Shown here piece by piece: positions 2,854-20,076 of a stretch of 46,698 nt of DNA. Below the pieces are notes generated by a model. It did not search any database and was not told where the DNA came from. It was given only the letters and a program-made list of their open reading frames with translations. Where the stretch lies: assembly GCA_030018355.1 (NCBI GenBank), contig JASEFN010000002.1, positions 1 to 46,698 of the forward strand. The letters run 5' to 3'. The first letter of the stretch is position 1; the number at the start of each line of letters is the position of its first letter. The stretch comes from Caldisericia bacterium (GTDB lineage: Bacteria > Caldisericota > Caldisericia > B22-G15). A program made the translations under genes and the position numbers.

Positions 2854-5800
2854 ATGACAAAAAAATTTTTATTATTAACTTTAATCTTTATACTGTTTAT
2901 TTCGTTTTTACCTTTGTTAAAAGTTAATGCAGATTCTCAAGAAGTGCTTGTAATAGTCCAACTAAAATCACCATCATATTCAGAATTTTTATCTAATAAA
3001 CGAAATTTGCCAATGTCAAATTTTACAAAGAATTCATATTTAAATTTACTTCAAAAAGAACATCAAAATTTCTTATTTTCAATTTTAAACAGTAAAATTT
3101 ATTTTAAAGAGAGATGGCACTATTTTTTATCTTACAATGGCATCTCTGGCGAGGTTAATAAAGAAGATATTGAAAAAATAAAGAAAAACCAATTTGTAAA
3201 AGATATCTTTATCGCAAAAACTCATAAACTAAATACAGATATTTTTGTTCCTCTTTTAAAAGCACCTCAAGTTTGGAAAATGAGTGATCAAAATGGGCTT
3301 CCTGTAACAGGAAAGGGAATGTTAATTGGTATTATTGATACAGGAATTGATTATAACCATCCAGATTTAGGTGGTGGAATTGGAAAAGATTTTAAGATTA
3401 AAGGTGGGTATGATTTTGCAGATAAAGATTCTGATCCACGTGATGTGGAGGGACATGGTACAGCAGTTGCAGGAATTGTAGCAGGAAATGGTAAGGTTAA
3501 GGGTGTAGCACCAGATGCAAATCTTATGGCTTATAAAGTTTTTCCAGATGGAGGAGAAGGGGCAAGCGATGCTGATATTATTGCAGCAATTGAACAAGCA
3601 TTAAAAGATGGTTGTACTGCAGTTAATTTATCTTTAGGTTCACCAGGTGGAAAAAGTGAAGGAGATGATGAGACAAATCAAATTAATAATGCAGTTAATT
3701 TAGGTTTAATTGTTGTTGCAGCTGCTGGAAATGATGGATTAAGAAGTAAAGAACTTGGTTGGCCAATAAGCGCACCATCAAGTGCGAAAAATGCAATATC
3801 TGTTGCTGCAAGTGATGAGGGTGGGGGAACTGTAAATATAGTTTATCCTTCAGGATATGAAGATAAATTTATACCATTTACATATGGAGAAGGAGTTCCT
3901 GAATTTCCTGAGGGAAAAGAGTACGAACTTGTATATTGTGGGTATGGTAGAGAAAAAGATTTTGAAGGTAAAGATTTAAAAGGAAAACTTGCTTTAATTC
4001 AAAGAGGACCACTTGCGCCAGAGTCAGCACTTTTATTTGAAACAAAGTATTTTAATGCCCTTTCTTATGGTGCTGAAGGGGTTATTGTTTTTAATACTGC
4101 TCCTGGACCCAATGTAATTATGGCTCTTAATGTACAGAATCATCCCGGGGTAGAATTAAAACCAGCAGTTTTTATTATGGAAGAGGATGGATATCTTTTG
4201 AAATCATTAATAGAACAAGGTGTTAGAGTTTCATTTACAAGAAAGTTAAGAAAAGAAAACTTAGTTGCTGATTTTTCATCACAAGGACCAACACCAGATG
4301 ATGTATTTAAGCCAGAAGTTGCAGCACCTGGAACAAATACATTTACAACTGCACCTCAAAATCAATATACCTATGGATTTGGAGGAACATCAGGAGCAAC
4401 ACCTTTTGTTTGTGGATCAACAGCGCTCCTTAAACAACTTCACCCAGATTGGACTCCATTTGATATAAAAACAAGTTTAATGAATAATGCATTTATTTTA
4501 ATTAATCCAAATAATAATCTTCCTTTCTCTTGGACAGATCAAGGATCTGGAAGAGTAGATGTTTTTGCTGCAGCAACCACACCTCTTTTAATAAAACCTT
4601 ATTCAATTTTTATAAAAGATAAAGAGGGCGAAATATCAATAGTTGTAAAAAATGTAACAAAAGATAAAGTAGATTTTAAAGTCAGTTCTAGCGTTATAGG
4701 TAATATATCAGGAATTAATTTTGATTATATAGACAAAGAAGAAAGTTTTTCAGTTGATAAAGAAAGTGAATTGACAATTAATTTCAAATATAGTATTGAT
4801 GATAAATTATCAGAAGGATATTATGATGGAATAATATATTTTAAACTTTCTGATAGAACACTTCATGTTCCAATAATAATTAAAAAAGGAATTCCTAAAG
4901 TACCAACAAAAGTTTTAGAAGTGCTTTCAGTTGAGCCAAAAATTTTATCCCCAGATGGTGACGGGATAAATGATTTTATTAATTTTAAATTTAAATTAAA
5001 TTATGGTGAAAAGGGTTTAAGAGATGAAAAATCATATAGAAGTAGAGTTGGTGGAGTTATAATTGACATTTTTGACGAAAAAGAGACAACAAAATTAGGA
5101 ACAATTTACAAAAAAGTTTTAATGAATGGTTCCTATGAGTTTGTTTGGGATGGGAAAGATTATGATGGAAAATATTTTTTGGATAATGGAAATTATAAAT
5201 ATAAAATTTACACAGTTACAATCCAATCAGGAGACACTTTAAAACTTGTTGAGGAGGTTGGTTTAACAGGAGATTTTAAAATTGAAAATGTTAAAATTCC
5301 ATTTTCAAAATTTATCTCTCTTGATAAATATAGCAAAGGAGCAATTTTTAATATCGAATTACATGCTAATAAATTAAAAAATATTAAGGAATTAAGATAT
5401 ACAATTGAATATGATCCTCAGCATCTTTCAATTTTAGAAGTTAATCTTGGAGATTTTATAATTAGAAATGATAATAATGCAAAAATTGAAACTAAAATAG
5501 ACAATAAAAACGGAATTATAGATGTAAAAATTTCAATTACCTTAACAGATGGCATATCAGGTGAAGGCACTATATTAAAATTAAAATTTAATTCCATAAA
5601 AGATGGTGGAGTAAAATTAACACAAACATATGCATATGGTTTTGACATTAATAAAATTAAAATTGAATTTATTAAAATTGATAAAATAATAATTATTACT
5701 CCCTTACAAGGAGATATAAATGGTGATGGAAAAGTAGATTCTGAAGATTTGATTATTTTTGCAAAAGCATTTGGAACTAAATTAGGAGACCCAGATTATA

Positions 5801-5889
5801 ATGAAAAATGTGATCTGAATGGAGATGGAAAGGTTGATGCAGAAGACCTTCTTCTTTTAGCCCAAAACTTTGGAACACAAGCACCTTAA
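2854..5889 (+). CDS. Secreted subtilisin-like (S8) protease with PA, FlgD-like, cohesin-like and dockerin domains
   Basis: This is a 1011-residue extracellular serine protease. Order: signal peptide (1-27, ending KVNADS); an I9-like propeptide; the S8 catalytic domain with Asp162 (IIDTGIDYNHPDL), His201 (GHGTAVAGI), oxyanion Asn293 (AAGND) and Ser513 (GGTSGATPF); a protease-associated insert near 350-470; an Ig-like region; a FlgD-like motif (LSPDGDGINDFI and FVWDGKDYDGKY, about 695-795); a cohesin-like domain at about 815-945; and a dockerin-like pair of Ca-binding loops (DINGDGKVDSED and DLNGDGKVDAED, about 953-1007). Layout resembles lactocepin-type proteases. AAGGAGGA precedes the ATG. 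A protease carrying both cohesin-like and dockerin modules could join surface assemblies; that is inference. Confidence 0.93.
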   Translation: MTKKFLLLTLIFILFISFLPLLKVNADSQEVLVIVQLKSPSYSEFLSNKRNLPMSNFTKNSYLNLLQKEHQNFLFSILNSKIYFKERWHYFLSYNGISGEVNKEDIEKIKKNQFVKDIFIAKTHKLNTDIFVPLLKAPQVWKMSDQNGLPVTGKGMLIGIIDTGIDYNHPDLGGGIGKDFKIKGGYDFADKDSDPRDVEGHGTAVAGIVAGNGKVKGVAPDANLMAYKVFPDGGEGASDADIIAAIEQALKDGCTAVNLSLGSPGGKSEGDDETNQINNAVNLGLIVVAAAGNDGLRSKELGWPISAPSSAKNAISVAASDEGGGTVNIVYPSGYEDKFIPFTYGEGVPEFPEGKEYELVYCGYGREKDFEGKDLKGKLALIQRGPLAPESALLFETKYFNALSYGAEGVIVFNTAPGPNVIMALNVQNHPGVELKPAVFIMEEDGYLLKSLIEQGVRVSFTRKLRKENLVADFSSQGPTPDDVFKPEVAAPGTNTFTTAPQNQYTYGFGGTSGATPFVCGSTALLKQLHPDWTPFDIKTSLMNNAFILINPNNNLPFSWTDQGSGRVDVFAAATTPLLIKPYSIFIKDKEGEISIVVKNVTKDKVDFKVSSSVIGNISGINFDYIDKEESFSVDKESELTINFKYSIDDKLSEGYYDGIIYFKLSDRTLHVPIIIKKGIPKVPTKVLEVLSVEPKILSPDGDGINDFINFKFKLNYGEKGLRDEKSYRSRVGGVIIDIFDEKETTKLGTIYKKVLMNGSYEFVWDGKDYDGKYFLDNGNYKYKIYTVTIQSGDTLKLVEEVGLTGDFKIENVKIPFSKFISLDKYSKGAIFNIELHANKLKNIKELRYTIEYDPQHLSILEVNLGDFIIRNDNNAKIETKIDNKNGIIDVKISITLTDGISGEGTILKLKFNSIKDGGVKLTQTYAYGFDINKIKIEFIKIDKIIIITPLQGDINGDGKVDSEDLIIFAKAFGTKLGDPDYNEKCDLNGDGKVDAEDLLLLAQNFGTQAP

Positions 5890-5917
5890 GTTTTTAATAT
5901 ATTGTCAAAAAAGTGTA

Positions 5918-5945
5918 AAGGAGGGCGATTTGCCCTCCTTTTTAT
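5918..5945. terminator. Bidirectional Rho-independent terminator
   Basis: AAGGAGGGC (5918-5926) pairs with GCCCTCCTT (5932-5940) around a 5-nt loop and is followed by a T run. It lies between the convergent subtilase and ATP-grasp genes and can serve both. Confidence 0.85.
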
Positions 5946-6896
5946 TTACATATATCTTTTTATTGCAATCTCAATGATTTTTAAAATAAAATCATCATAA
6001 GTAAATCCAGCTTTTTCTGCCATTTTTAAAATATCAGAATATCCTGGTACAAGAAGAGGAAGAGAGTTTACCTCTAAAATATAATATTTTCCATTTTTAA
6101 TTCTTATATCCATTCTTGTATAATCCCTTAAATTTAGTACTTTATATGCCTTAACAACACCCTCCTTTAAAGATTCTTCCTCATCTTTTAAAAGTCTTGC
6201 AGGACAGTAATATTTCACTTCTTCTATCTCATTTTTTACCCTATAAGAGAAAAATCTTTCAATGCCATCTGGAAGTGAATAAAAATCAATTTCAAGAAAT
6301 GGTAACACTTCTATTTCATCTCCATTTCCAATTATTCCGCAAGTTATCTCTCTACCTTCTATAAATTCTTCTACAATGGCAGGCTCAGAGAACTCCTTAT
6401 GAATTTTATTTGCCTCTCTTTTTATTCCTTCTATATCATAAACAATCGAGTCTTTTGTTAGACCAAAAGCACTTCCCTCTCTTACTGGTTTAACAATAAC
6501 AGGAAAAGAAAGATTAAAATTTTTTTCAAATGAGTTTATTTCATATTCTTTAATAAGTGTAAATTTTGGAGTTGAAATTCCATAAAAAGATAAAATAAGT
6601 TTTGTAATAAATTTATCAAGACAAATTGTATGAACAAAAGCAGAGGAGCCAGTGTATGGAACTCCTAATATATCTAAAATTGCTGGAACATGAATTTGTC
6701 TTCCTTCTTTTCCTCCGCTTGTTGCTAAATTAAAAACAAAATCAACATTTTTTATATTTTCAAAAAAGTTTTCATCAAATGGAATTTTAATTGCATCATA
6801 TTTTTTATTTAATGCATAAAAAACAGAATCAACCATTTTTTGTTTATTTTTGTCAAGAATTTTATCATGAACAACACCAATTATTTTTATTTTCAT
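5946..6896 (-). CDS. D-Ala-D-Ala ligase-like ATP-grasp protein
   Basis: This 316-residue protein has the D-alanine-D-alanine ligase fold. It has an N-terminal domain with FNLATSGGKEGRQIHVPAIL, where Ddl usually has an NEG/EDG loop, then GVPYTGSSAF, the ATP-binding segment FPVIVKPVREGSAFGL, EEFIEGREIT and the metal-binding end YYILEVNSLPLL. It lies 18 nt behind the B12 mutase-like gene and is clearly in its operon, without mur, van or other cell-wall genes. It may therefore ligate a non-standard amino acid made by the neighbours instead of D-Ala. Known of the family: ATP-dependent carboxylate-amine ligation through an acyl phosphate. The substrate is unknown; true Ddl activity remains possible. 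Confidence 0.8.
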   Translation of the reverse strand: MKIKIIGVVHDKILDKNKQKMVDSVFYALNKKYDAIKIPFDENFFENIKNVDFVFNLATSGGKEGRQIHVPAILDILGVPYTGSSAFVHTICLDKFITKLILSFYGISTPKFTLIKEYEINSFEKNFNLSFPVIVKPVREGSAFGLTKDSIVYDIEGIKREANKIHKEFSEPAIVEEFIEGREITCGIIGNGDEIEVLPFLEIDFYSLPDGIERFFSYRVKNEIEEVKYYCPARLLKDEEESLKEGVVKAYKVLNLRDYTRMDIRIKNGKYYILEVNSLPLLVPGYSDILKMAEKAGFTYDDFILKIIEIAIKRYM

Positions 6897-6913
6897 AAAA
6901 TTTCACCTTATAC

Positions 6914-8539
6914 TTAAAATCCTAATTTTTTTAATCTATCCTTTTCTTTTAAAATTTTCCCGTTCTCATCAACAGCATAATTTGCTCCATTTATTACTTC
7001 ACATCTTATCTCCCCTCTTGCAACTGAAAAACCAACTAATCCTGGTGCATCAAGAATTCCAGTTTTAACTGCAATATATAGAGTTTCTGGATCTAAAAGT
7101 GGATCCTCCCTTCCTTTTCCTAATTCTTTAATTTTTTCAACAAGGAAGAGTGCCTCATCTTTTAACTCTTGAACCCTATTTTTTATGTCTTTATCTTGAT
7201 AAAAATCTGGGAGACCAGAATCTGCTACAAGATATGCTCTTTTTACCATTTTTACACTTTCAATTATCTCTTTACTTGTTGCTCTTTTTATCGCTTCAGT
7301 ATAAGCAACAACATGAATTATATCTGGCTTCAAATATGAGCCATAAAACATTGATGAAACAAGTTGGCCCATTGCTTGATATGGATCAGATGGATAAGAA
7401 AGAAGTCCTGTTCTTATCATAGTGTAAACTTTAAAATTTTCATCTTGAAGTGATTCAACAAGTTCTTTTCTTGCTAAACTTTTTGCAATATCCATTTTTG
7501 GTGAAAGGTTAGGTGGTGAGTTTAACATATATTGTTGAATATAATGTTTTACTCCGAGTTTTTTTGCAATGTATGCAACAAGAAAAGAGTCTGCTACCGC
7601 AAGTGTATCATGAGCATTTCTTAACTCCCATTGATGAGAGTCATTTACCTCAACTGGTACTCCATTTTCTGCGTTCCATTTTATTCCTTCCATGTTTTCT
7701 TTTATTGCAGATAGAAGTTCTCTATCGCTCCTTCTGTCAAGTTCAGAATACCAAAATATTGGAATAGCTGCCCATGCATTATTTATAGTTTCCTTGAGTA
7801 ATTTCGAAAATTTTACAATATTTCTTGTCCCAGAATAGCATCTTACAAGTGGATAGTTTCCTCTCCTTGATGCTTCATATAATTTTCTAAAATCATCCTC
7901 TGTTCTTATAGGAGCACCACCTGCTCCAGATAACTTTTCGTCCATTTTTTCTTTTTCAAAAAAATAACTTTGACAATTTTGATCTGGAGCAATAGAAATT
8001 ATGTCGAGTAGCATACTTTCTGCAAGTTTTTTAATCTCCTCTATAGTTTCTTCTAATGTTTGAAGTCCAATATGGTGTCTTATAAGTGGATATGGTTTTT
8101 TAAATTCTACTCTCTCCCATAAAGTTTGAGGATAATCCTCTTCCTTAATTATTTTCTCTCTTCCCTTTAAAAAATTTAAAACTTCTTCTATCTCTTCGCT
8201 TCCATCAAAAACTCTATCAAAAATTTTATACTCCTTTGCTACTTTTCCTGTTTCAATTGTTCCACCAAAAACAAATTTTATATTTTTATTTTTTATATTT
8301 TTAATTTTTTCAATTAGTTCATTTAAAAGATTTCTTAAAGGTTCTTCACCTAATCTATAACTAATTGCTACAATATCTGGATCAACTTCAACAATTGCTC
8401 CAAAAAGTTTTTCAATTGGAACCGCTCCTCCAAGATAATGTATTTCATATCCCTCCTTTTTTGCTAGATTTAAAAAATTAAGAAGCCCTGCAACATGTAT
8501 ATCATTTCCTATTGCTGCACCCACAACCTTTTTATTCAT
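6914..8539 (-). CDS. Fused B12-dependent glutamate mutase-like enzyme (MutS-like plus MutE-like domains)
   Basis: The 541-residue protein begins with a cobalamin-binding Rossmann domain (about 1-130). It has the base-off motif GNDIHVAG (Asp13, His15, Gly18), an S-x-L-like AISYRLG and the GG of FVFGGTI. From about 150 onward it resembles the TIM-barrel large subunit of glutamate (methylaspartate) mutase, for example YPLVRCYSGTRNI, VEVNDSHQWELRNAHD, QQYMLNSPPNLSPKMD and RTGLLSYPSDPYQA. The classical clostridial enzyme has these as separate S and E subunits; here they are one chain. The expected reaction is a radical carbon-skeleton rearrangement with adenosylcobalamin. It overlaps the opine-dehydrogenase-like gene by 8 nt and lies downstream of the B12 uptake operon. 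The exact substrate is not readable from sequence. Confidence 0.82.
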   Translation of the reverse strand: MNKKVVGAAIGNDIHVAGLLNFLNLAKKEGYEIHYLGGAVPIEKLFGAIVEVDPDIVAISYRLGEEPLRNLLNELIEKIKNIKNKNIKFVFGGTIETGKVAKEYKIFDRVFDGSEEIEEVLNFLKGREKIIKEEDYPQTLWERVEFKKPYPLIRHHIGLQTLEETIEEIKKLAESMLLDIISIAPDQNCQSYFFEKEKMDEKLSGAGGAPIRTEDDFRKLYEASRRGNYPLVRCYSGTRNIVKFSKLLKETINNAWAAIPIFWYSELDRRSDRELLSAIKENMEGIKWNAENGVPVEVNDSHQWELRNAHDTLAVADSFLVAYIAKKLGVKHYIQQYMLNSPPNLSPKMDIAKSLARKELVESLQDENFKVYTMIRTGLLSYPSDPYQAMGQLVSSMFYGSYLKPDIIHVVAYTEAIKRATSKEIIESVKMVKRAYLVADSGLPDFYQDKDIKNRVQELKDEALFLVEKIKELGKGREDPLLDPETLYIAVKTGILDAPGLVGFSVARGEIRCEVINGANYAVDENGKILKEKDRLKKLGF

Positions 8540-9617
8540 ACCCCTCCTCCAGATATTTTATAATCTCCTCTGGAGTTTTTCCTTTTAAGCCCAATTTTTC
8601 AACTGTTCTACCAGACTCAAAATAGTTTTCACCCATCATAACATTTGCTAAATGAATTATTGAATCTATGATTTGTGTTTTTATATCAAACTCTTTTCCA
8701 AATGAAGAGATTGGAACTAAACTCATTGGAACATCCTCTGTTATGTATCTATTATCAATACTTGGTGGGGCTATTATTCCTTGATATCCACTGTTATTAT
8801 GAATTGCTTCATAAAGGTTTTTACCTGTTACATCATATGCATATTTTAACCAATTAAGAGAGGTTAAAGGTTCGACTCCAAACTTTTTCATAACAAGACA
8901 TCTTTCTTCGTCAACTTTTTCAAGAATTTTTGCAACCGATTGTGTTATTCCCTCTAAGTAAAACTCAAATTTTCCTGCAGTTGATTCAATTCTCGCAGCA
9001 TTAAGAATTAAAGTTGCTGGATGAAAAACAGCACCAATGTTATTAAAACTTGTATAAATTGTATTTGGAACTACTTCAAACTCAGGCATTACCTCATTCA
9101 TAATTTCTTTAAGTTCATCATTTCTTTTCGCTGGAATCGCTGAAATTGGAACAGCATTTTTAATTCTAAAAATTTTTACAACTCCTGGATTTGACATACG
9201 AGACGCAAAAATAAAAGTTTGCGCTTCTGCAATTAATACATCTTTTTTAACTCCTTTTAACTTAAAAACATTTTTAAATTCGAGTGCACCACAAGTTCTA
9301 CCAGGATTTAATAAAATTATTTGTCCATCCTCTACAAAAGGGGCAATTCTTTCGGCAATTTCTCTATGAGCAAATGCAGGAACAACCACCATTATAAGTT
9401 TTCTTCCTTTTATTGCTTCTTCTAAATTTGTTGTTGCAAGTGAAATTTCAAAAACTCCTTTTACTTCGCCTTCGACTTTTATTTTTTTGCTTTCTATAAT
9501 AGGTTCTATTCTCCATCTGCTTCTATTGTATAAAGATACATCGAAATTTTTCATAGCAAGGTAGGCGCAAAGAGCTTGCCCCCCATTACCTGCACCAATA
9601 ACAGCAATTTTAATCAT
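8532..9617 (-). CDS. Opine (octopine/nopaline) dehydrogenase-family oxidoreductase
   Basis: This 361-residue protein starts with a Rossmann fold (IAVIGAGNGGQAL, Gly8-x-Gly10) for NAD(P). It contains LNPGRTCGALEF and, in the C-terminal helical domain, NNIGAVFHPATLILNAARIE, which carries the family's conserved His. Opine dehydrogenases reductively condense an amino acid with a 2-oxo acid. The start is ATG 9617 behind GGAGGTGG. It is the first gene of the three-gene B12-enzyme unit and overlaps the mutase gene by 8 nt. The substrate is inferred only loosely: an amino acid formed by the mutase, or its oxo-acid, is the obvious candidate. Other ketopantoate-reductase-like dehydrogenases share this fold, so the opine label is a family name and not a proven reaction. 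Confidence 0.82.
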   Translation of the reverse strand: MIKIAVIGAGNGGQALCAYLAMKNFDVSLYNRSRWRIEPIIESKKIKVEGEVKGVFEISLATTNLEEAIKGRKLIMVVVPAFAHREIAERIAPFVEDGQIILLNPGRTCGALEFKNVFKLKGVKKDVLIAEAQTFIFASRMSNPGVVKIFRIKNAVPISAIPAKRNDELKEIMNEVMPEFEVVPNTIYTSFNNIGAVFHPATLILNAARIESTAGKFEFYLEGITQSVAKILEKVDEERCLVMKKFGVEPLTSLNWLKYAYDVTGKNLYEAIHNNSGYQGIIAPPSIDNRYITEDVPMSLVPISSFGKEFDIKTQIIDSIIHLANVMMGENYFESGRTVEKLGLKGKTPEEIIKYLEEGYE

Positions 9618-9649: not shown

Positions 9650-9660
9650 ATTATACCATG
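9650..9660 (-). promoter_or_regulatory. Extended -10 promoter of the B12-enzyme unit
   Basis: On the minus strand TGGTATAAT forms an extended -10 whose TG is the end of the REP palindrome at 9658-9690. It gives the three-gene unit its own promoter and a leader of about 30 nt with GGAGGTGG. No strong -35 is visible. Confidence 0.5.
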
Positions 9661-9690
9661 TTACAATGGTGTCAGACACCTTTGTAACAT
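9658..9690. repeat. REP palindrome copy 1
   Basis: This is a 33-bp palindrome with arms ATGTTACAA/TTGTAACAT and core GGTGTC-A-GACACC. One nucleotide separates it from the btuD stop codon (9692-9694). Confidence 0.9.
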
Positions 9691-9691
9691 G

Positions 9692-10426
9692 TTAGAAAAT
9701 AAAGGGGATATTTTCTTCAAAAAGGTTTATAATTTCTTCTATTTTGACTAAATTTTTTACTTCTCCATATTTTTCCAAAACCCCATTTTTAAGTAAAATT
9801 ATTTTATCACATAAATATTTTATTGAATTTATTTCATGAAAAACAGAGATGATCGTTTTTTGTGAACTTTTAAGTTCTTTTAATAAATTTAATATTTTAA
9901 TTTTAAATTTCAAATCAAGATGTGTTAATGGTTCATCAAGAATAATTATTTCTGTTTCTTGAATTAATGTTCTAATTAAAGTCAAAAGTTGTTTTTCACC
10001 TTCTGATAAAATTTGAAAATTTATATCTTTAAGATGAGTTATATTAAATTTTTCCATCCAATATAAAACAATCTCTTTATCCTCTTTTTTTACAAATCCA
10101 TCAATATAAGGAGCCCTTCCAGTTAATAGGTAATCAAATGTTTTTAATGGGAAAAATATGTTTACTTTTTGAGGAACATAAGAGAAAATTTTACCCCTCT
10201 CTCTTTCACTTATTTTAAAAATATCAATTCCATTAAAATATACACCCCCCTTTTGTGGTTTTAAAATACCCAAAATAACCTTAAGAAGTGTGGTTTTTCC
10301 ACTTCCATTTGGTCCAAAAATTGATATACTTTCTCCCTTTTTAACAGTAAAACTTATATTTTTTAAAACCTCTTTATTCTTATATGAAAAAGAGACATTT
10401 TTTATTTCAAGATAACTTTTATTCAT
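9692..10426 (-). CDS. btuD: Cobalamin ABC transporter ATP-binding protein
   Basis: This is a 244-residue FecE/BtuD-type ATPase. Walker A is GPNGSGKT (38-45), the Q-loop lies in FSYVPQK, the signature is LSEGEKQLL, Walker B is IIILDEP, and the H-loop His is in SVFHEIN. It drives import through the adjacent permease. I start it at ATG 10426, where the permease stop and this ATG overlap as TAATG behind AAGGTG. A frame open to 10447 lacks a better site. The riboswitch at the head of the operon supports cobalamin as substrate over iron-siderophore. The stop codon abuts REP copy 1. Confidence 0.88.
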   Translation of the reverse strand: MNKSYLEIKNVSFSYKNKEVLKNISFTVKKGESISIFGPNGSGKTTLLKVILGILKPQKGGVYFNGIDIFKISERERGKIFSYVPQKVNIFFPLKTFDYLLTGRAPYIDGFVKKEDKEIVLYWMEKFNITHLKDINFQILSEGEKQLLTLIRTLIQETEIIILDEPLTHLDLKFKIKILNLLKELKSSQKTIISVFHEINSIKYLCDKIILLKNGVLEKYGEVKNLVKIEEIINLFEENIPFIF

Positions 10427-11403
10427 TAAAACACCTTCTCTTTCCATAATACATATAAAAAAAATGGAACACCTAAAAATGAAGTAATAGTTGCAACTGG
10501 TATCTCATTTGGATAAAATATTGCTCTTCCAAATAAATCTGAGAGAGTAAGAAGAAGACCACCGAAAAAAATTGAAAGAAAAAGAAGTTTTATATGTTTT
10601 AAGCCAAAAATTTCTCTTAATATATTTGGGACCATAAGACCAACAAATCCTATTATTCCAGAAACATAAACGCTTATTCCAGTTAAAATTGAAATTAAAA
10701 TAAGAGTTAAAGTTTTAAGTAAATTTGTATTAATTCCAAGAGTTTTTGCTTGATCTTCTCCAAGAGAATAAACATCAAGATTAAAACTTAAAAATATTGA
10801 AGTTATAAAAGATGGAATAAAAATAAGTACCAAAAAAAGAAATTTATTCATATCAACATTTGAGAAACCCGTTAAAGACCAAAACACAGATTTATTTAAA
10901 ACATCTCTTCCCCATATGATAAGAAATGTTGAAAGGGAAGAGAAAAGATAATTAATTGCAATACCAGAAAGAAGTAAATTAAGAGGTGTTATTTTCCCCT
11001 TTATTTTACTTATTAAATATATTATTGAGACAGAAAAAAGAGCACCTAAAAAAGAGAAAAAAGATAATGAGAATTTAAATAAAGCATCAAGACCTAAAAA
11101 GAGAGACAGGGTTACAAAAAAATTTGCACCAGAAGATATTCCAAATAAAAATGGATCTGCGAGAGGATTTAAAAATAGAGTTTGTGAGAGAAGGCCTGCA
11201 ATTGAAAGAGATGCGCCAACAAATAAAGAAGCAAAGACTCTTGGAAATCTTATTTTTACAAATAATTCATCACTATTTTTGAAATTAAAAATAAAATTTA
11301 TTATCTCCTGAAAAGTGTATCTTTTTGCTCCAAATGATAAAGATAAAAAAATTGAGATAATAAGTAAAAAAATTATTATTATAATAAAAATTTTTTCTCT
11401 CAT
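10426..11403 (-). CDS. btuC: Cobalamin ABC transporter permease (BtuC/FecCD family)
   Basis: This 325-residue inner-membrane permease of the FecCD family has many hydrophobic helices. The family hallmarks are RFPRVFASLFVGASLSIAG, NPLADPFLFGISSGAN, LLLSGIAINYLFSS and the coupling region VSGIIGFVGLMVPNILR. It overlaps the upstream binding-protein gene by 4 nt (ATGA) and the downstream ATPase gene by one base, so the three are one translationally coupled operon. Cobalamin specificity is inferred from the riboswitch and not from the sequence of the permease. Confidence 0.9.
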   Translation of the reverse strand: MREKIFIIIIIFLLIISIFLSLSFGAKRYTFQEIINFIFNFKNSDELFVKIRFPRVFASLFVGASLSIAGLLSQTLFLNPLADPFLFGISSGANFFVTLSLFLGLDALFKFSLSFFSFLGALFSVSIIYLISKIKGKITPLNLLLSGIAINYLFSSLSTFLIIWGRDVLNKSVFWSLTGFSNVDMNKFLFLVLIFIPSFITSIFLSFNLDVYSLGEDQAKTLGINTNLLKTLTLILISILTGISVYVSGIIGFVGLMVPNILREIFGLKHIKLLFLSIFFGGLLLTLSDLFGRAIFYPNEIPVATITSFLGVPFFLYVLWKEKVF

Positions 11404-12731
11404 CTTATAAATAGGGAGGAGAGTCTCTCCTCCCTTAGAGATTGTGATAGTTCATCTTTGTGAATAAGTTTAAAAAGCTCCTCCATTCCATCAATTATTC
11501 TTGGCCCTAATCTAAAAATTAAATCCTCTTTTTCAAATATATAAACTCTTCTATTTTTAACAGCATCAATGTTTTGCCATCCCGGCCTTTTCAAAATATC
11601 ATCTATATTTTGTCCCATATATGTAATTATTATGACTTCAGGATTTTCGTTTATTATAAACTCTTGTGAAAGAATTGGCCAATCACCGGTTGCTTTGCTA
11701 GCTATATTAATTCCTCCAACTTCTTCTATTATCTCATTTAAATATGTATTTTTCCCAACTGACATATAAGGATTATTCCATATTTCAAGATAAACCTTTC
11801 TTTTTTTCAATTTTTTAGCCTCTTCTAAAATTTTAAATCTTCTTTCATTTAAATTTTTAACAAGTTCTTTTGCCTCTTCTCTTTTATCTACAACTTTTCC
11901 AATAGTTAAAATCAAATTAAATAGATCGTCAAGACTTTTTGGATCAAACGCAAGATTTTTTATGTTTAATTTTTTAAGATTAATAAATAGATCAATTGGA
12001 TTTCCTCTAATACCAAAAACAAAGTCTGGTTTTAGAGAATAAATTTTTTCAAGATTTGGATTTGAAAAACCGCCTATTTTTTCTTTCTTTTTTGCCTCTT
12101 CAGGATAATTACAAAATTCAGTTACTCCAATAATTTCATCTTTTAAACCAAGTGCAAAAAGAATTTCTGTGTTTGATGGGGCAAGAGAAATTATTCTTTT
12201 TGGTTTTTCATAAAATGTTACTTCATTGTAAAGATCATCTTTTATTGTTATTTTAGGATAGATATATCCAGAAAGAAGCACTCTTTTATTCTTTCCATCC
12301 CAAATAAGATTTAAGTCAAAAATTTTACTTATATCTCTTACTGAAATAAAAGTTAAGTTTTTAAATAAAACTGGTTTAAAAAGAAATTCTTTTCTTGTTC
12401 CATCAAAAGTGTAGAATCCCTCTTTGACAAAAATTTTAATATCCTTTTTATTAAACCCAAAACTTATGCTTTTTTCCATCTCATTCCACTTATATTCTAT
12501 TTCAGAAGCATTAAGGAAGTCTCTAAGTGGAATAAAAACTCTTCCATTTAATACTAAAGGCTTCTCAGTAAAATTTAAAATCTCTCCATTTTTTAGAAAA
12601 CTTTTTGACTCAAGAGTAAATGAAAAATTTAAATTAAATGAATAAGTTAAATTGATTGATTTAAGATAAGATGAAAAAAATAAAATAAATAATAGAGTGA
12701 CTAAAAGAGTAAATTTTAAAAATTTTTTCAT
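11400..12731 (-). CDS. btuF: Cobalamin-binding protein (BtuF-like) with N-terminal copper-amine-oxidase-N-like domain
   Basis: This 443-residue exported protein has a signal or anchor segment at 1-25. About 45-155 is a two-repeat domain of the Cu_amine_oxidN1 (stalk) type (LNGRVFIPLRDFLNASEIEYKW; FKNLTFISVRDISKIFDLNLIW). From about 165 it is a periplasmic-binding-protein type III fold with the BtuF-like entry PKRIISLAPSNTEILFALG and GVTEFCNYP. Usual BtuF proteins lack the N-terminal domain. The same stalk-type domain closes the S-layer-like protein of this window, so it may hold the receptor at the wall; this is inference. RBS AAGGAGGA precedes ATG. It is the first gene of the riboswitch-controlled operon. 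Confidence 0.9.
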   Translation of the reverse strand: MKKFLKFTLLVTLLFILFFSSYLKSINLTYSFNLNFSFTLESKSFLKNGEILNFTEKPLVLNGRVFIPLRDFLNASEIEYKWNEMEKSISFGFNKKDIKIFVKEGFYTFDGTRKEFLFKPVLFKNLTFISVRDISKIFDLNLIWDGKNKRVLLSGYIYPKITIKDDLYNEVTFYEKPKRIISLAPSNTEILFALGLKDEIIGVTEFCNYPEEAKKKEKIGGFSNPNLEKIYSLKPDFVFGIRGNPIDLFINLKKLNIKNLAFDPKSLDDLFNLILTIGKVVDKREEAKELVKNLNERRFKILEEAKKLKKRKVYLEIWNNPYMSVGKNTYLNEIIEEVGGINIASKATGDWPILSQEFIINENPEVIIITYMGQNIDDILKRPGWQNIDAVKNRRVYIFEKEDLIFRLGPRIIDGMEELFKLIHKDELSQSLREERLSSLFIR

Positions 12732-13501: not shown

Positions 13502-14347
13502 ATGGGTAGAGAAAGAAGACTAAATATTGAAAATGGTTATTTTCATGTTATTTCTAAATCTGTTGAAGAGACAAATCTTTATAATGATGATGAGGATTAT
13601 GAAAAATTTTTAAAAATTTTAAATGAAGAGAGATTAAAACATAATATTTCTATTTTTGCTTTTTGTCTTATGCCAAATCACTATCATATTTTGTTAAAAA
13701 CAAATAATTCAAATTTATCATATTTTATGAAATATTTAAATCATAGATACTCCTTATATTTCAATAATAAAAATTTTAGATTAGGCCATCTTTTTATGGA
13801 TAGATTTAAAAGTTTTTATATCAATAGTGATGGATATTTCTTGAATGTTTCAAGATATATTCATTTGAACCCTCTTGAAGCAAATCTTATCGATAAACCT
13901 CAAAACTACAATTGGAGTAGTTACAAATTTTATTATTATGATATTGAAAATTCACTTATAGATAAAAATTCTTTTTATGAAATAATCTCTTTAAAAAAGG
14001 AAGATTATATCTATTATGTGAATAATTTATATGAGAGTCTCATCTCCTCAGGAAGTGAAATAAATCATATTAACTCAATTAATGGGAATCCACTAAGAAT
14101 TTCTGAAGTTATTAAAAATTTGGAGAAAGCCTTTTCTAATATAGATAAAAAAATTTTTAGAAATTTAATTATATTTTATTTGTTAAACAAAAATTTCAAT
14201 GTAGATGATATAGCAGATTATTTTGACATTTCCAAAACCCATCTATATAGAATCGCTAACAAAATTGAAAGCGAAATGAGAAAAAATCCAAATATTGTTA
14301 AATTTTATAATGAAATTGAGAAGTTAGCACCTTTATATGAAGAATAG
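13502..14347 (+). CDS. REP-associated tyrosine transposase (RAYT, Y1/HUH family)
   Basis: This 281-residue single-strand DNA transposase is related to IS200/IS605 TnpA. The HUH motif is HYH (His60, His62) in FCLMPNHYHILLK. The catalytic Tyr candidate is Tyr119 in SRYIHLNPLEA, followed by the family motif NYNWSSYKFYY. A C-terminal helix-turn-helix (VDDIADYFDISKTHLYRI, about 240-265) is typical of RAYTs that bind their palindromes. GAGGTGAAAA precedes ATG. It is bracketed by REP copies 4, 5 and 6 and placed inside the umuDC operon without breaking either gene. RAYTs are usually single-copy and domesticated, unlike ordinary IS elements. Confidence 0.93.
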   Translation: MGRERRLNIENGYFHVISKSVEETNLYNDDEDYEKFLKILNEERLKHNISIFAFCLMPNHYHILLKTNNSNLSYFMKYLNHRYSLYFNNKNFRLGHLFMDRFKSFYINSDGYFLNVSRYIHLNPLEANLIDKPQNYNWSSYKFYYYDIENSLIDKNSFYEIISLKKEDYIYYVNNLYESLISSGSEINHINSINGNPLRISEVIKNLEKAFSNIDKKIFRNLIIFYLLNKNFNVDDIADYFDISKTHLYRIANKIESEMRKNPNIVKFYNEIEKLAPLYEE

Positions 14348-17646: not shown

Positions 17647-20076
17647 ATGAAGGTAATTATAGTTGGTGGAGTTGCAGGTGGAGCGACCTGTGCAACAAGG
17701 ATTAAAAGATTAAAAAGTGATGCAAATGTTAAAATTTTTGAGAGAGATTATTACATTTCTTATGCAAATTGTGGGATTCCATATTATATTGGTGGTCTTA
17801 TACCAAGAGAGCGCCTTTTTGTTACAAATCCCCAGGAGATGAAGAAAAAATATGGTATTGATGTTTATGTTAGACATGAAGTTTTAAAAATATTTCCTCA
17901 AGAGAAAAAAATTTTAGTAAAAAATCTTGAAACTCAAGAAGAATTTGAAGATAGCTATGATTTTCTTGTCTTATCTCCAGGTGCATCTCCTATAAAACCA
18001 AAAATTCCAGGAATTGAATCTTCAAAGATTTTTACTTTAAGAACAGTTGGAGATGCAGATAATATTATAAAAGAAATTGAGAGTGGAAAAAGAGAGGCTA
18101 CAGTGGTTGGGGGCGGTTTTATAGGAATTGAAGTAACAGAAAATTTAGTAAGAAGAGGGATTAAAGTAAATCTTGTAGAAGCACTTCCTCAAGTTTTATC
18201 TTTCCTTGATAAAGATTTAATATCTTACATTCATGATGAGTTAAAAATAAATGGAGTAAATCTTTATTTAGGTTCTGCTGTTAAAGAGTTTAAAGAAAAA
18301 GAAGATAAAATTGAGACAATTTTAGAAAATGGAACAAGTATTTCAAGTGATTTTGTTGTCTTTTCAATTGGTGTTAAGCCAGAAATCACCTTAGCAAAAG
18401 AGGCAGGACTTAAAATTGGTGAAACAGGTGGAATTTTAGTTGATGAGAATATGAGAACATCAAACCCAAATATTTTTGCAATTGGTGATGCAGTTGAAAT
18501 CGAAAATTTTATTACAAAAACAAAAACAAGAATTCCTCTTGCAGGTCCAACACATAAACAAGCGAGAGTAGCAGCAGATACAATTTGTGGAATCTCTTCA
18601 AAATATCTTGGGTCTATTGGAACAGCAATTGTTAAAGTTTTTAATATAACAGGAGCAGCAACTGGATTAAACTCAGTGAGTTTAGAAAAGTTAGGAATAA
18701 ATTATAAATTTGAGTGCCTTTCCACCTTTAACCATGCAGGTTACTATCCAGATGCATATCCACTCTATATTAAAGTTTTTTATGATGCAAATTCTGGGAG
18801 AGTGTTAGGGGGTCAAGCAGTTGGTTTTGATGGTGTTGATACAATTATAAACTCTCTTGCAACAGCAATAAGATTTAATGCAAAAGTAACAGAACTTAAA
18901 GATATTGATTTTGCATATTCACCTCAATATGGTCATGCAAAAAATCCACTAAATATCATTGGAACAATGGCAGAAGATGATTTATCAGGTCTTGCGCCTA
19001 AGGTAACAATTTTTGAGGTTGATGATTTGGTTAAAAAAGGTGCAGTTTTATTAGATATAAGAGAAAGAGAAGAGACTTTAACAAATAAAATTGAAAATTC
19101 AATTAATATTCCTTTAAGTGAATTAAAAGATAGATTTAATGAACTTGAAAAAGACAAACTTTATATTGTTTGTTGTGGTAAAGGACAAAGAGCATATAAT
19201 GCTGTAAGATTTTTAATTGATAATGGATATAATGCAAAATACCTTGCAGGTGGTTTAACATTTTATTCATCTTGTTTTGGTGGAGAAAAAGAATTGCAAT
19301 CAAAAAAAGTTGAAGAAAAAAGAGAGAGTGTTGATTTTATAAAAGAAAATGAAATTGTAAAGATAGATGCAAAAGGACTCTCATGTCCTGGACCTCTTAT
19401 GAAATTAAAAGAGGCCCTTGATAGGGTTTCTTCTGGAACAATAATAGAAATTGAAGCAACAGATCCTGGATTTTATAATGATATTCAATCTTATGCTAAA
19501 AGCAAAGGTTTATCTCTTCTTTCACTTGAGAAAGGAAAAATAATAAAAGCACTTCTTAAAAAAGATACTCAAAGTGAGAGGTTAAAAGAGAGTGTAGAGA
19601 AAAAAAGTGACTCAGTTTCTATTATTCTTTTTTCAAATGATTTTGATAGAGTTATGGCATCATTAATTATTGCAAATGGCGCTCTTTCTATGGGTAAAAA
19701 AGTTAGTATGTTCTTTACCTTTTGGGGTCTCAATGTTTTAAGAAAAGATTATAAAGTAGAAGTTAAAAAGAATTTTATTGAAAAAATGTTTGGTTTTATG
19801 ATGCCAAGGGGTGCAAAACGCCTAACCTTATCAAAAATGAATATGCTTGGAATTGGAACAAAAATGATCAAAGGAATTATGAAAAAATATAATGTTTTAC
19901 CACCTGAAGAACTTCTTAAAACTTTTATAAAAAATGGTGGAAGAGTTGTTGCGTGTAGAATGACAATGGATCTTATGGGAATAAAAAGAGAAGAATTAAT
20001 TGATGGAATAGAAGAAGGAGGAGTTGGTACATATCTTTCTTTTGCTGAAACTTCAGGAATAAACTTATTTATATAA
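17647..20076 (+). CDS. CoA-disulfide/persulfide reductase fused to rhodanese, TusA and DsrE-like domains
   Basis: This 809-residue cytoplasmic protein carries four sulfur-handling modules. Residues 1 to about 445 form a flavin disulfide reductase of the CoADR/NADH-dependent persulfide reductase type (FAD loop VGGVAGGATCATRI, single active Cys42 in SYANCGIPYYIGG, NAD loop VVGGGFIGIEV). About 455-550 is a rhodanese domain with loop CGKGQR (Cys510). About 565-640 is a TusA domain (GLSCPGPL, Cys580). About 655-809 is a DsrE/DsrF-like domain with LFSNDFDRVMASLIIANGALSMGKKV. Together they could pass persulfide sulfur between Cys residues and reduce it with NAD(P)H. GAAAGGAGAGAG precedes ATG. Known relatives have the first two or three domains. 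Confidence 0.9.
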   Translation: MKVIIVGGVAGGATCATRIKRLKSDANVKIFERDYYISYANCGIPYYIGGLIPRERLFVTNPQEMKKKYGIDVYVRHEVLKIFPQEKKILVKNLETQEEFEDSYDFLVLSPGASPIKPKIPGIESSKIFTLRTVGDADNIIKEIESGKREATVVGGGFIGIEVTENLVRRGIKVNLVEALPQVLSFLDKDLISYIHDELKINGVNLYLGSAVKEFKEKEDKIETILENGTSISSDFVVFSIGVKPEITLAKEAGLKIGETGGILVDENMRTSNPNIFAIGDAVEIENFITKTKTRIPLAGPTHKQARVAADTICGISSKYLGSIGTAIVKVFNITGAATGLNSVSLEKLGINYKFECLSTFNHAGYYPDAYPLYIKVFYDANSGRVLGGQAVGFDGVDTIINSLATAIRFNAKVTELKDIDFAYSPQYGHAKNPLNIIGTMAEDDLSGLAPKVTIFEVDDLVKKGAVLLDIREREETLTNKIENSINIPLSELKDRFNELEKDKLYIVCCGKGQRAYNAVRFLIDNGYNAKYLAGGLTFYSSCFGGEKELQSKKVEEKRESVDFIKENEIVKIDAKGLSCPGPLMKLKEALDRVSSGTIIEIEATDPGFYNDIQSYAKSKGLSLLSLEKGKIIKALLKKDTQSERLKESVEKKSDSVSIILFSNDFDRVMASLIIANGALSMGKKVSMFFTFWGLNVLRKDYKVEVKKNFIEKMFGFMMPRGAKRLTLSKMNMLGIGTKMIKGIMKKYNVLPPEELLKTFIKNGGRVVACRMTMDLMGIKREELIDGIEEGGVGTYLSFAETSGINLFI

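What the first reader, a model, noticed from the sequence alone, without database searches (positions are those of the whole stretch)
5946..9617. Undescribed-looking B12 pathway: opine dehydrogenase-like, fused glutamate mutase-like and D-Ala-D-Ala-ligase-like genes in one unit
Seen: three genes with 8-nt overlap and 18-nt spacing and their own extended -10 promoter. Known: glutamate mutase rearranges the carbon skeleton of glutamate using AdoCbl, opine dehydrogenases condense an amino acid with an oxo acid, and ATP-grasp ligases join a carboxylate to an amine. Inferred: the trio could make a branched amino acid, reductively N-alkylate it and ligate it, giving an opine-like or dipeptide-like product. 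No methylaspartase or fermentation gene and no cell-wall gene accompanies them, so neither glutamate fermentation nor ordinary Ddl function explains the set. The mutase is also fused in one chain, unlike classical MutS+MutE.
Basis: partly seen in the sequence, partly recalled or inferred. Interest (0 to 1): 0.82.

Follow-up and report, generated by a model that had tools for sequence, protein, structure and literature searches.

The report
B12 mutase–opine dehydrogenase osmotic-stress pathway
A widespread but uncharacterised trio of enzyme genes (a vitamin-B12 mutase, an opine-type dehydrogenase and an ATP-driven ligase) is controlled in many relatives by an RNA switch that senses the salt-stress messenger c-di-AMP, so it probably makes a still unidentified small molecule that protects cells against osmotic stress.

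Summary
In detail: opine-dehydrogenase-like (ODH), B12-mutase-like and D-Ala-D-Ala-ligase-like genes form one unit with its own conserved extended -10 element. ODH adjoins the mutase in 74 of 80 loci from bacteria and archaea. The third gene is an interchangeable ATP-dependent ligase: Ddl-like in 19 loci, asparagine-synthetase-like (mostly lacking the glutaminase Cys) in 14, never both. Each enzyme keeps its chemistry core but not all specificity features of its namesake: ODH keeps the opine catalytic residues; the mutase fold is closest to glutamate mutase but lacks its arginine claw; the ligase keeps ATP/Mg residues and loses Glu15, Glu68 and Tyr216 of Ddl. The decisive new clue is regulation: a c-di-AMP riboswitch lies immediately upstream of ODH in 18 of 66 loci scanned, and nowhere else in 1.0 Mb; one locus has alkali-cation (nhaA-I) riboswitches; some are followed by Na+/H+ exchanger or mechanosensitive-channel genes. 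Best reading: an AdoCbl-dependent pathway for an amino-acid-derived compatible solute, not glutamate fermentation or cell-wall synthesis. Substrate and product remain unknown. The pair was noticed in 2009 (Halothermothrix), role unknown; I found no description of this regulatory link, but the key c-di-AMP riboswitch papers were not readable here.

The parts
8532..9617 (-). Opine-dehydrogenase-like enzyme (ODH), first gene of the unit; 361 aa
   Evidence: PF02317 E=1.4e-46; N-(1-D-carboxylethyl)-L-norvaline dehydrogenase 1bg6 E=2e-75 full length; H199, R290, D295 invariant in 35 sequences
6914..8539 (-). Fused B12-dependent mutase: N-terminal cobalamin-binding domain (residues 4-118) + glutamate-mutase-type TIM barrel; 541 aa
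   Evidence: PF02310 E=7e-12; AlphaFold model pLDDT 93.7, best PDB match glutamate mutase E chain E=1.2e-17; H15/G18 invariant in 62 sequences
5946..6896 (-). Ddl-like ATP-grasp carboxylate-amine ligase, third gene; 316 aa
   Evidence: PF07478 E=4.4e-34; ATP/Mg/catalytic residues kept, D-Ala1-site residues E15, E68, Y216 replaced
9650..9658 (-). Extended -10 element TGGTATAAT of the unit's own promoter
   Evidence: sequence; conserved in L003, L031, L009
9657..9691 (-). 35-nt imperfect palindrome (hairpin) abutting the -10 element; in this species it carries a REP-like GGTGTCAGACACC core
   Evidence: congeners have a hairpin of different sequence at the same place
5917..5941 (.). Bidirectional terminator-like hairpin ending the unit
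9692..12731 (-). Adjacent upstream ABC transporter of the B12/iron type (ATPase 9692-10447, FecCD permease 10426-11403, binding protein 11400-12731); probably supplies cobalamin, may read through into the unit
   Evidence: Pfam; homologous ATPase fragment also upstream in congeners L003/L031/L009
12763..12930 (-). Cobalamin riboswitch heading the transporter operon
   Evidence: RF00174, 98.6 bits, E=1.6e-23

Best explanation
The unit encodes a biosynthetic pathway for an amino-acid-derived compatible solute (osmoprotectant). Shown by sequence: a two-gene core of an opine-type dehydrogenase and an AdoCbl-type fused mutase is conserved across bacteria and archaea; an ATP-dependent ligase (ATP-grasp here, asparagine-synthetase-like elsewhere) is the common third enzyme; in many relatives the operon starts with a c-di-AMP riboswitch, or rarely an alkali-cation one. 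Inferred: the ODH reductively joins an amino acid to a 2-oxo acid (or acts on a related imine); the mutase rearranges a carbon skeleton by the AdoCbl radical mechanism with a substrate pocket different from glutamate mutase; the ligase then amidates a carboxylate or couples it to an amine, lowering charge. The order of the steps is not established; gene order suggests ODH -> mutase -> ligase. c-di-AMP, high when cells are not osmotically stressed, would shut the operon off. In the window species, which has no ydaO riboswitch, control must be by another element.
For: ODH adjacent in 74/80 loci, and adjacent or present in genomes that first seemed to lack it. 18 c-di-AMP riboswitches in 66 scanned ODH-mutase loci, all on ODH's strand and directly upstream of it (aptamer end about 3-205 nt from the start where measured), and no other RF00379 hit in about 1.0 Mb. 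One of them (L131) precedes the full ODH-mutase-ATP-grasp trio in the window's order. Complete promoter-aptamer-terminator leader in Thermoanaerobacter wiegelii L065. nhaA-I riboswitches upstream of both ODH-mutase and the separate ligase gene in L099. CBS + Na+/H+ exchanger (L132, L099), MscS in L132, and a mechanosensitive-channel-type TM protein after the operon (L102; weak in L084, L093). Host has a diadenylate cyclase. Precedent: Na+-I and c-di-AMP riboswitches control ablA, and Na+-I controls eam, for the osmolytes beta-lysine and beta-glutamate (PMC9337991). Adjacent B12 transporter and cobalamin riboswitch in the window.
Against: No c-di-AMP riboswitch anywhere in the window's own genome, so the osmotic role is transferred from relatives. 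ydaO riboswitches also control cell-wall genes. Most riboswitch-bearing loci are Firmicutes; the Thermotogae, Halanaerobiales and archaeal loci scanned lack it. No substrate, product or expression data. An ATP-grasp or AsnB-like ligase is adjacent in only 33 of 80 loci, though unlinked close relatives exist in some genomes.
Confidence: 0.68

Rival explanations
1. The unit makes a modified D-amino acid or dipeptide for the cell wall; the Ddl-like ligase and ydaO control reflect cell-wall remodelling.
For: ydaO riboswitches also control cell-wall genes (PMC5575661); the ligase is Ddl-related; an ornithine-racemase-like gene lies in the L080 operon.
Against: D-Ala1-site residues E15/E68/Y216 lost while the genome keeps a canonical Ddl; the module occurs in Thorarchaeota and Theionarchaea MAGs, which are not expected to have peptidoglycan; ligase replaced by an AsnB-like enzyme; antiporter/MscS and cation-riboswitch links.
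Confidence: 0.1
2. Catabolic: a branch of amino-acid fermentation (glutamate, ornithine or lysine) alongside the host's other B12 mutases.
For: Host has OrtAB/OraSE-like and lysine-fermentation-type gene clusters by inspection; the mutase is of the glutamate/ornithine mutase superfamily; the L080 operon has an Orr-like racemase.
Against: No methylaspartase; PLP lysine of OraE replaced by Ala26 (alignment); claw not conserved; an ATP-consuming ligase and osmotic riboswitches do not fit a degradative route.
Confidence: 0.1
3. A B12-based analogue of pyrrolysine synthesis: mutase = PylB-like carbon-skeleton step, ATP-grasp = PylC-like ligation, dehydrogenase = PylD-like oxidation, giving a pyrroline-type amino acid.
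For: Same three reaction classes (established knowledge of PylB/C/D); ligase of the Ddl/PylC superfamily.
Against: PylC/PylD models are not among the best NCBIfam matches shown; ligase often absent or of another family; ODH carries opine-dehydrogenase features; osmotic control. Presence of PylS/tRNA-Pyl was not tested.
Confidence: 0.04
4. An opine-type metallophore or other secondary metabolite unrelated to turgor.
For: Opine dehydrogenases make staphylopine-type metallophores (established knowledge); transporter of the FecCD type next door.
Against: The transporter is under a cobalamin riboswitch and was seen there only in congeners; no exporter or receptor is conserved with the core in the 89 loci clustered.
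Confidence: 0.07

Closest known systems
Hore_09740/Hore_09750 operon of Halothermothrix orenii (PMC2626281, 2009)
   Same: Described as an octopine dehydrogenase + cobalamin-binding protein operon shared with Thermoanaerobacter, Petrotoga, Thermosipho and others; by description the same two-gene core
   Different: Authors left the role unknown ('adaptations to hot anaerobic environments'); no mutase fold, third ligase, archaeal spread or riboswitch link in the passage read. I did not retrieve these two sequences.
Glutamate mutase (MutS/MutE, GlmS/GlmE)
   Same: B12 domain plus TIM barrel of the same fold; whole-barrel profile alignment (E about 1e-6)
   Different: One chain with the B12 domain first; claw R66->H156 and R100->Q190 in all 62; R149 not confidently aligned
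D-ornithine 4,5-aminomutase OraE / lysine 5,6-aminomutase
   Same: Same AdoCbl superfamily; OraE B12 domain is the best sequence match in the PDB
   Different: B12 domain N-terminal instead of C-terminal; the position of the PLP-binding Lys is Ala26
N-(1-D-carboxylethyl)-L-norvaline dehydrogenase / octopine dehydrogenase
   Same: Fold and catalytic His/Asp/Arg
   Different: Nearly always paired with a B12 mutase; substrate unknown
D-Ala-D-Ala ligase
   Same: ATP-grasp fold, ATP/Mg and catalytic residues
   Different: First-substrate pocket rebuilt; E68 becomes Arg/Lys in 11 of 20
[quoted passage not shown]
   Same: Mutase-based osmolyte synthesis controlled by Na+ (ablA also by c-di-AMP) riboswitches (PMC9337991)
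   Different: Those are aminomutases of the radical-SAM class (established knowledge); here a B12 mutase with opine DH and ligase

Membership tests
Glutamate mutase | AdoCbl-binding domain with DxHxxG-type motif | tested here: met
   PF02310 above cut-off; H15 and G18 invariant, Asp variable
Glutamate mutase | TIM barrel of the MutE fold | tested here: met
   Foldseek best hits 6h9e_B/1cb7_B, TM 0.66-0.67 by target
Glutamate mutase | Arginine claw R66, R100, R149 (PMC9545868) | tested here: not met
   R66->His 62/62, R100->Gln 62/62 in two alignments; R149 gapped or near Y235
Glutamate mutase | Separate S and E subunits; methylaspartase partner in the fermentation pathway | tested here: not met
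   single 541-aa chain; no MAAL in genome
PLP/AdoCbl aminomutases (OraE, KamDE) | PLP-binding Lys in the B12-domain loop | tested here: not met
   OraE Lys (residue identity from memory) aligns with Ala26, a nearly invariant Ala in the family
Opine dehydrogenase | Rossmann + Octopine_DH domains and catalytic His/Asp with substrate Arg | tested here: met
   H199, R290, D295 invariant; roles of these residues from established knowledge
Opine dehydrogenase | NAD(P)H-dependent reductive condensation of amino acid and 2-oxo acid | not testable with these tools
   needs enzyme assay
D-Ala-D-Ala ligase | ATP/Mg and transition-state residues (K97, K144, R255, D257, E270, N272) | tested here: met
D-Ala-D-Ala ligase | D-Ala1-site residues E15, Y216 (and E68) | tested here: not met
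   replaced by L14, N222, R66; the genome's canonical Ddl keeps them
c-di-AMP-controlled osmolyte operon | ydaO riboswitch upstream | tested here: inconclusive
   met in 18 relatives' loci; not in the window's genome
Compatible-solute pathway | Product accumulates in the cytoplasm on osmotic upshift | not testable with these tools
   needs metabolomics
Pyrrolysine biosynthesis PylBCD | Homology to PylC/PylD; PylS and tRNA-Pyl in genome | not tested
   only noted that PylC/PylD models are not among the best NCBIfam matches shown

The most novel reading that the evidence does not exclude
A new AdoCbl-dependent biosynthetic route, shared by anaerobic and thermophilic bacteria and archaea, makes a structurally unknown opine- or branched-amino-acid-type compatible solute: a B12-dependent osmolyte pathway under c-di-AMP and alkali-cation riboswitch control, with a new substrate class for the glutamate-mutase fold.
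Probability: 0.5. Interest if true: 0.9.

Novelty: new variant of a known kind. Interest (0 to 1): 0.78.

Why it matters
It assigns a testable physiological role to a B12-enzyme family with over 500 relatives in the genome collection whose role was left open in 2009. If true, it connects vitamin B12 to osmotic homeostasis and c-di-AMP signalling, points to an unknown osmolyte in cultivated thermophiles such as Thermoanaerobacter, and provides a glutamate-mutase fold with a rebuilt active site.

Tried and rejected
Search of viral contigs and plasmids with the mutase: nothing. Weak extra MutE-model hits in Thermotogae (G101:C38, G103:C9, G108:C1) proved, by inspection, to be methylmalonyl-CoA-mutase-type genes. 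My first neighbourhood table undercounted ODH because long antisense ORFs hid it; recounted with HMMs. Phylum-wide search around Neomarinimicrobiota: only 2 of 149 genomes carry the full mutase, the rest are B12-domain matches. Considered and rejected: ordinary Ddl, classical glutamate mutase, PLP aminomutase. Literature searches for the enzyme combination found no description. Nelson 2013 (c-di-AMP riboswitches) is not held; the structured-RNA survey I looked up is not held either.
Full report
Observation. The overlap is 8 nt and the second gap 17 nt. An extended -10 element TGGTATAAT precedes ODH and is conserved with its A-rich downstream sequence in congeners L003/L031 and L009, each with a hairpin just upstream. 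Immediately upstream on the same strand sits an ABC transporter of the FecCD/BtuC type headed by a cobalamin riboswitch. The host genome has no methylaspartase and keeps a canonical Ddl elsewhere.

A conserved module. A genome scan with a 10-sequence profile confirmed 517 relatives and held the 80 best, from Thermotogae, several Firmicutes classes, Bacteroidales, Neomarinimicrobiota, Omnitrophota, Theionarchaea, Thorarchaeota and others. An HMM recount finds ODH on the same strand and adjacent in 74 of the 80; one of the remaining six mutases starts within 200 nt of a contig end. In 15 genomes in which ODH first seemed not to adjoin the mutase, ODH matches are present in all, most of them strong, several in fact adjacent. 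The third gene varies: Ddl-like ATP-grasp in 19 loci, asparagine-synthetase-like in 14, never both. Of the 14 AsnB-like proteins, at least eight start with another residue in place of the glutaminase Cys2, as in beta-lactam synthetase-type enzymes (related chains 1q15 and 1jgt). Some genomes hold a close relative of the ATP-grasp gene elsewhere; three archaeal genomes with an adjacent AsnB-like gene hold none. A NAD-synthase family gene sits between mutase and ATP-grasp in Theionarchaea, an ornithine-racemase-like gene in the Neomarinimicrobiota operon and a D-glutamate-cyclase-like gene in L064. These are single-lineage hints that amino acids, perhaps D-forms, are involved.

The enzymes. ODH matches N-(1-D-carboxylethyl)-L-norvaline dehydrogenase over its full length, and the His/Asp pair and Arg are invariant. 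The mutase model (pLDDT 93.7) is closest to the glutamate mutase E chain, then ornithine and lysine aminomutases. Glutamate mutase holds its substrate with R66, R100 and R149 (PMC9545868). At the first two positions all 62 family members have His and Gln; R149 falls in a poorly aligned strand near invariant Y235, with invariant R154 and R233 two residues upstream of H156 and Y235. The PLP lysine of OraE is Ala26 (alignment). So this is, by inference, an AdoCbl-type carbon-skeleton mutase with a different substrate. The ligase keeps the equivalents of K97, K144, E187, K215, R255, D257, E270 and N272 but replaces E15, E68 and Y216.

Function from regulation. Rfam scans of 66 ODH-mutase loci, about 1.0 Mb in all, found 18 c-di-AMP (ydaO) riboswitches. 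Every one lies upstream of ODH on its strand: L048-L053, L056, L059, L060, L062, L065-L067, L069, L100, L103, L104, L131. L131 controls the complete ODH-mutase-ATP-grasp trio, with the aptamer ending at the ribosome-binding region. L065 shows promoter, aptamer, terminator, ribosome site and ODH in order. In L099 an nhaA-I riboswitch precedes ODH-mutase-CBS-Na+/H+ exchanger and a second one precedes the AsnB-like ligase about 2 kb away. L132 has ODH-mutase-CBS-exchanger-MscS. [quoted passage not shown] PMC5575661). nhaA-I RNAs sense Li+, and some variants Na+ (PMC9646797; PMC9337991). The most economical reading is synthesis of a compatible solute.

Limits. The window's own genome has a diadenylate cyclase but no ydaO riboswitch, so the role is inferred from relatives. 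Substrate, product and step order are unknown. The rival most consistent with ydaO control, cell-wall modification, is weakened by the archaeal members and the lost Ddl specificity residues. The 80 loci are the most similar of 517, related loci are not independent, and the riboswitches are concentrated in Firmicutes. The gene pair itself was noted in 2009 with unknown role (PMC2626281); I could not read the primary c-di-AMP riboswitch papers, so earlier mention of this association cannot be excluded.

Noticed in passing
window 9668-9680, 12961, 13459, 14356, 14387, 17565, 23532, 37784; gene 13502-14347: GGTGTCAGACACC palindromes (12 strand matches at up to 1 mismatch, 0.03 expected) together with a Y1 (IS200-like/RAYT-type) transposase gene: a probable REP family, one copy forming the hairpin before ODH.
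   Followed up: partly
window 2854-5889: Secreted subtilase with PA domain and a C-terminal dockerin type I domain; similar protease genes sit near the trio in L137 and L142.
   Followed up: partly
G000:C3:135265-135981 (L112): 663-aa fusion of a methyltransferase-like domain and a Ddl-like ATP-grasp domain, 34% identical to the window's ligase; function unknown.
   Followed up: no
L138 (G000:C1:242000-258000) and L139 (G000:C2:214000-230000): Apparent OrtAB-OraSE ornithine and Kam-type lysine fermentation clusters in the host, i.e. other AdoCbl users (by inspection).
   Followed up: partly
window 17647-20076: 809-aa fusion of a pyridine-nucleotide-disulphide oxidoreductase with rhodanese, TusA and DsrE-like domains.
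   Followed up: no
L080 4256-9401: Neomarinimicrobiota operon mutase-ATP-grasp-ornithine-racemase-like (NF040742, 422 bits, cut-off 480)-ODH: the best available hint to the substrate.
   Followed up: partly
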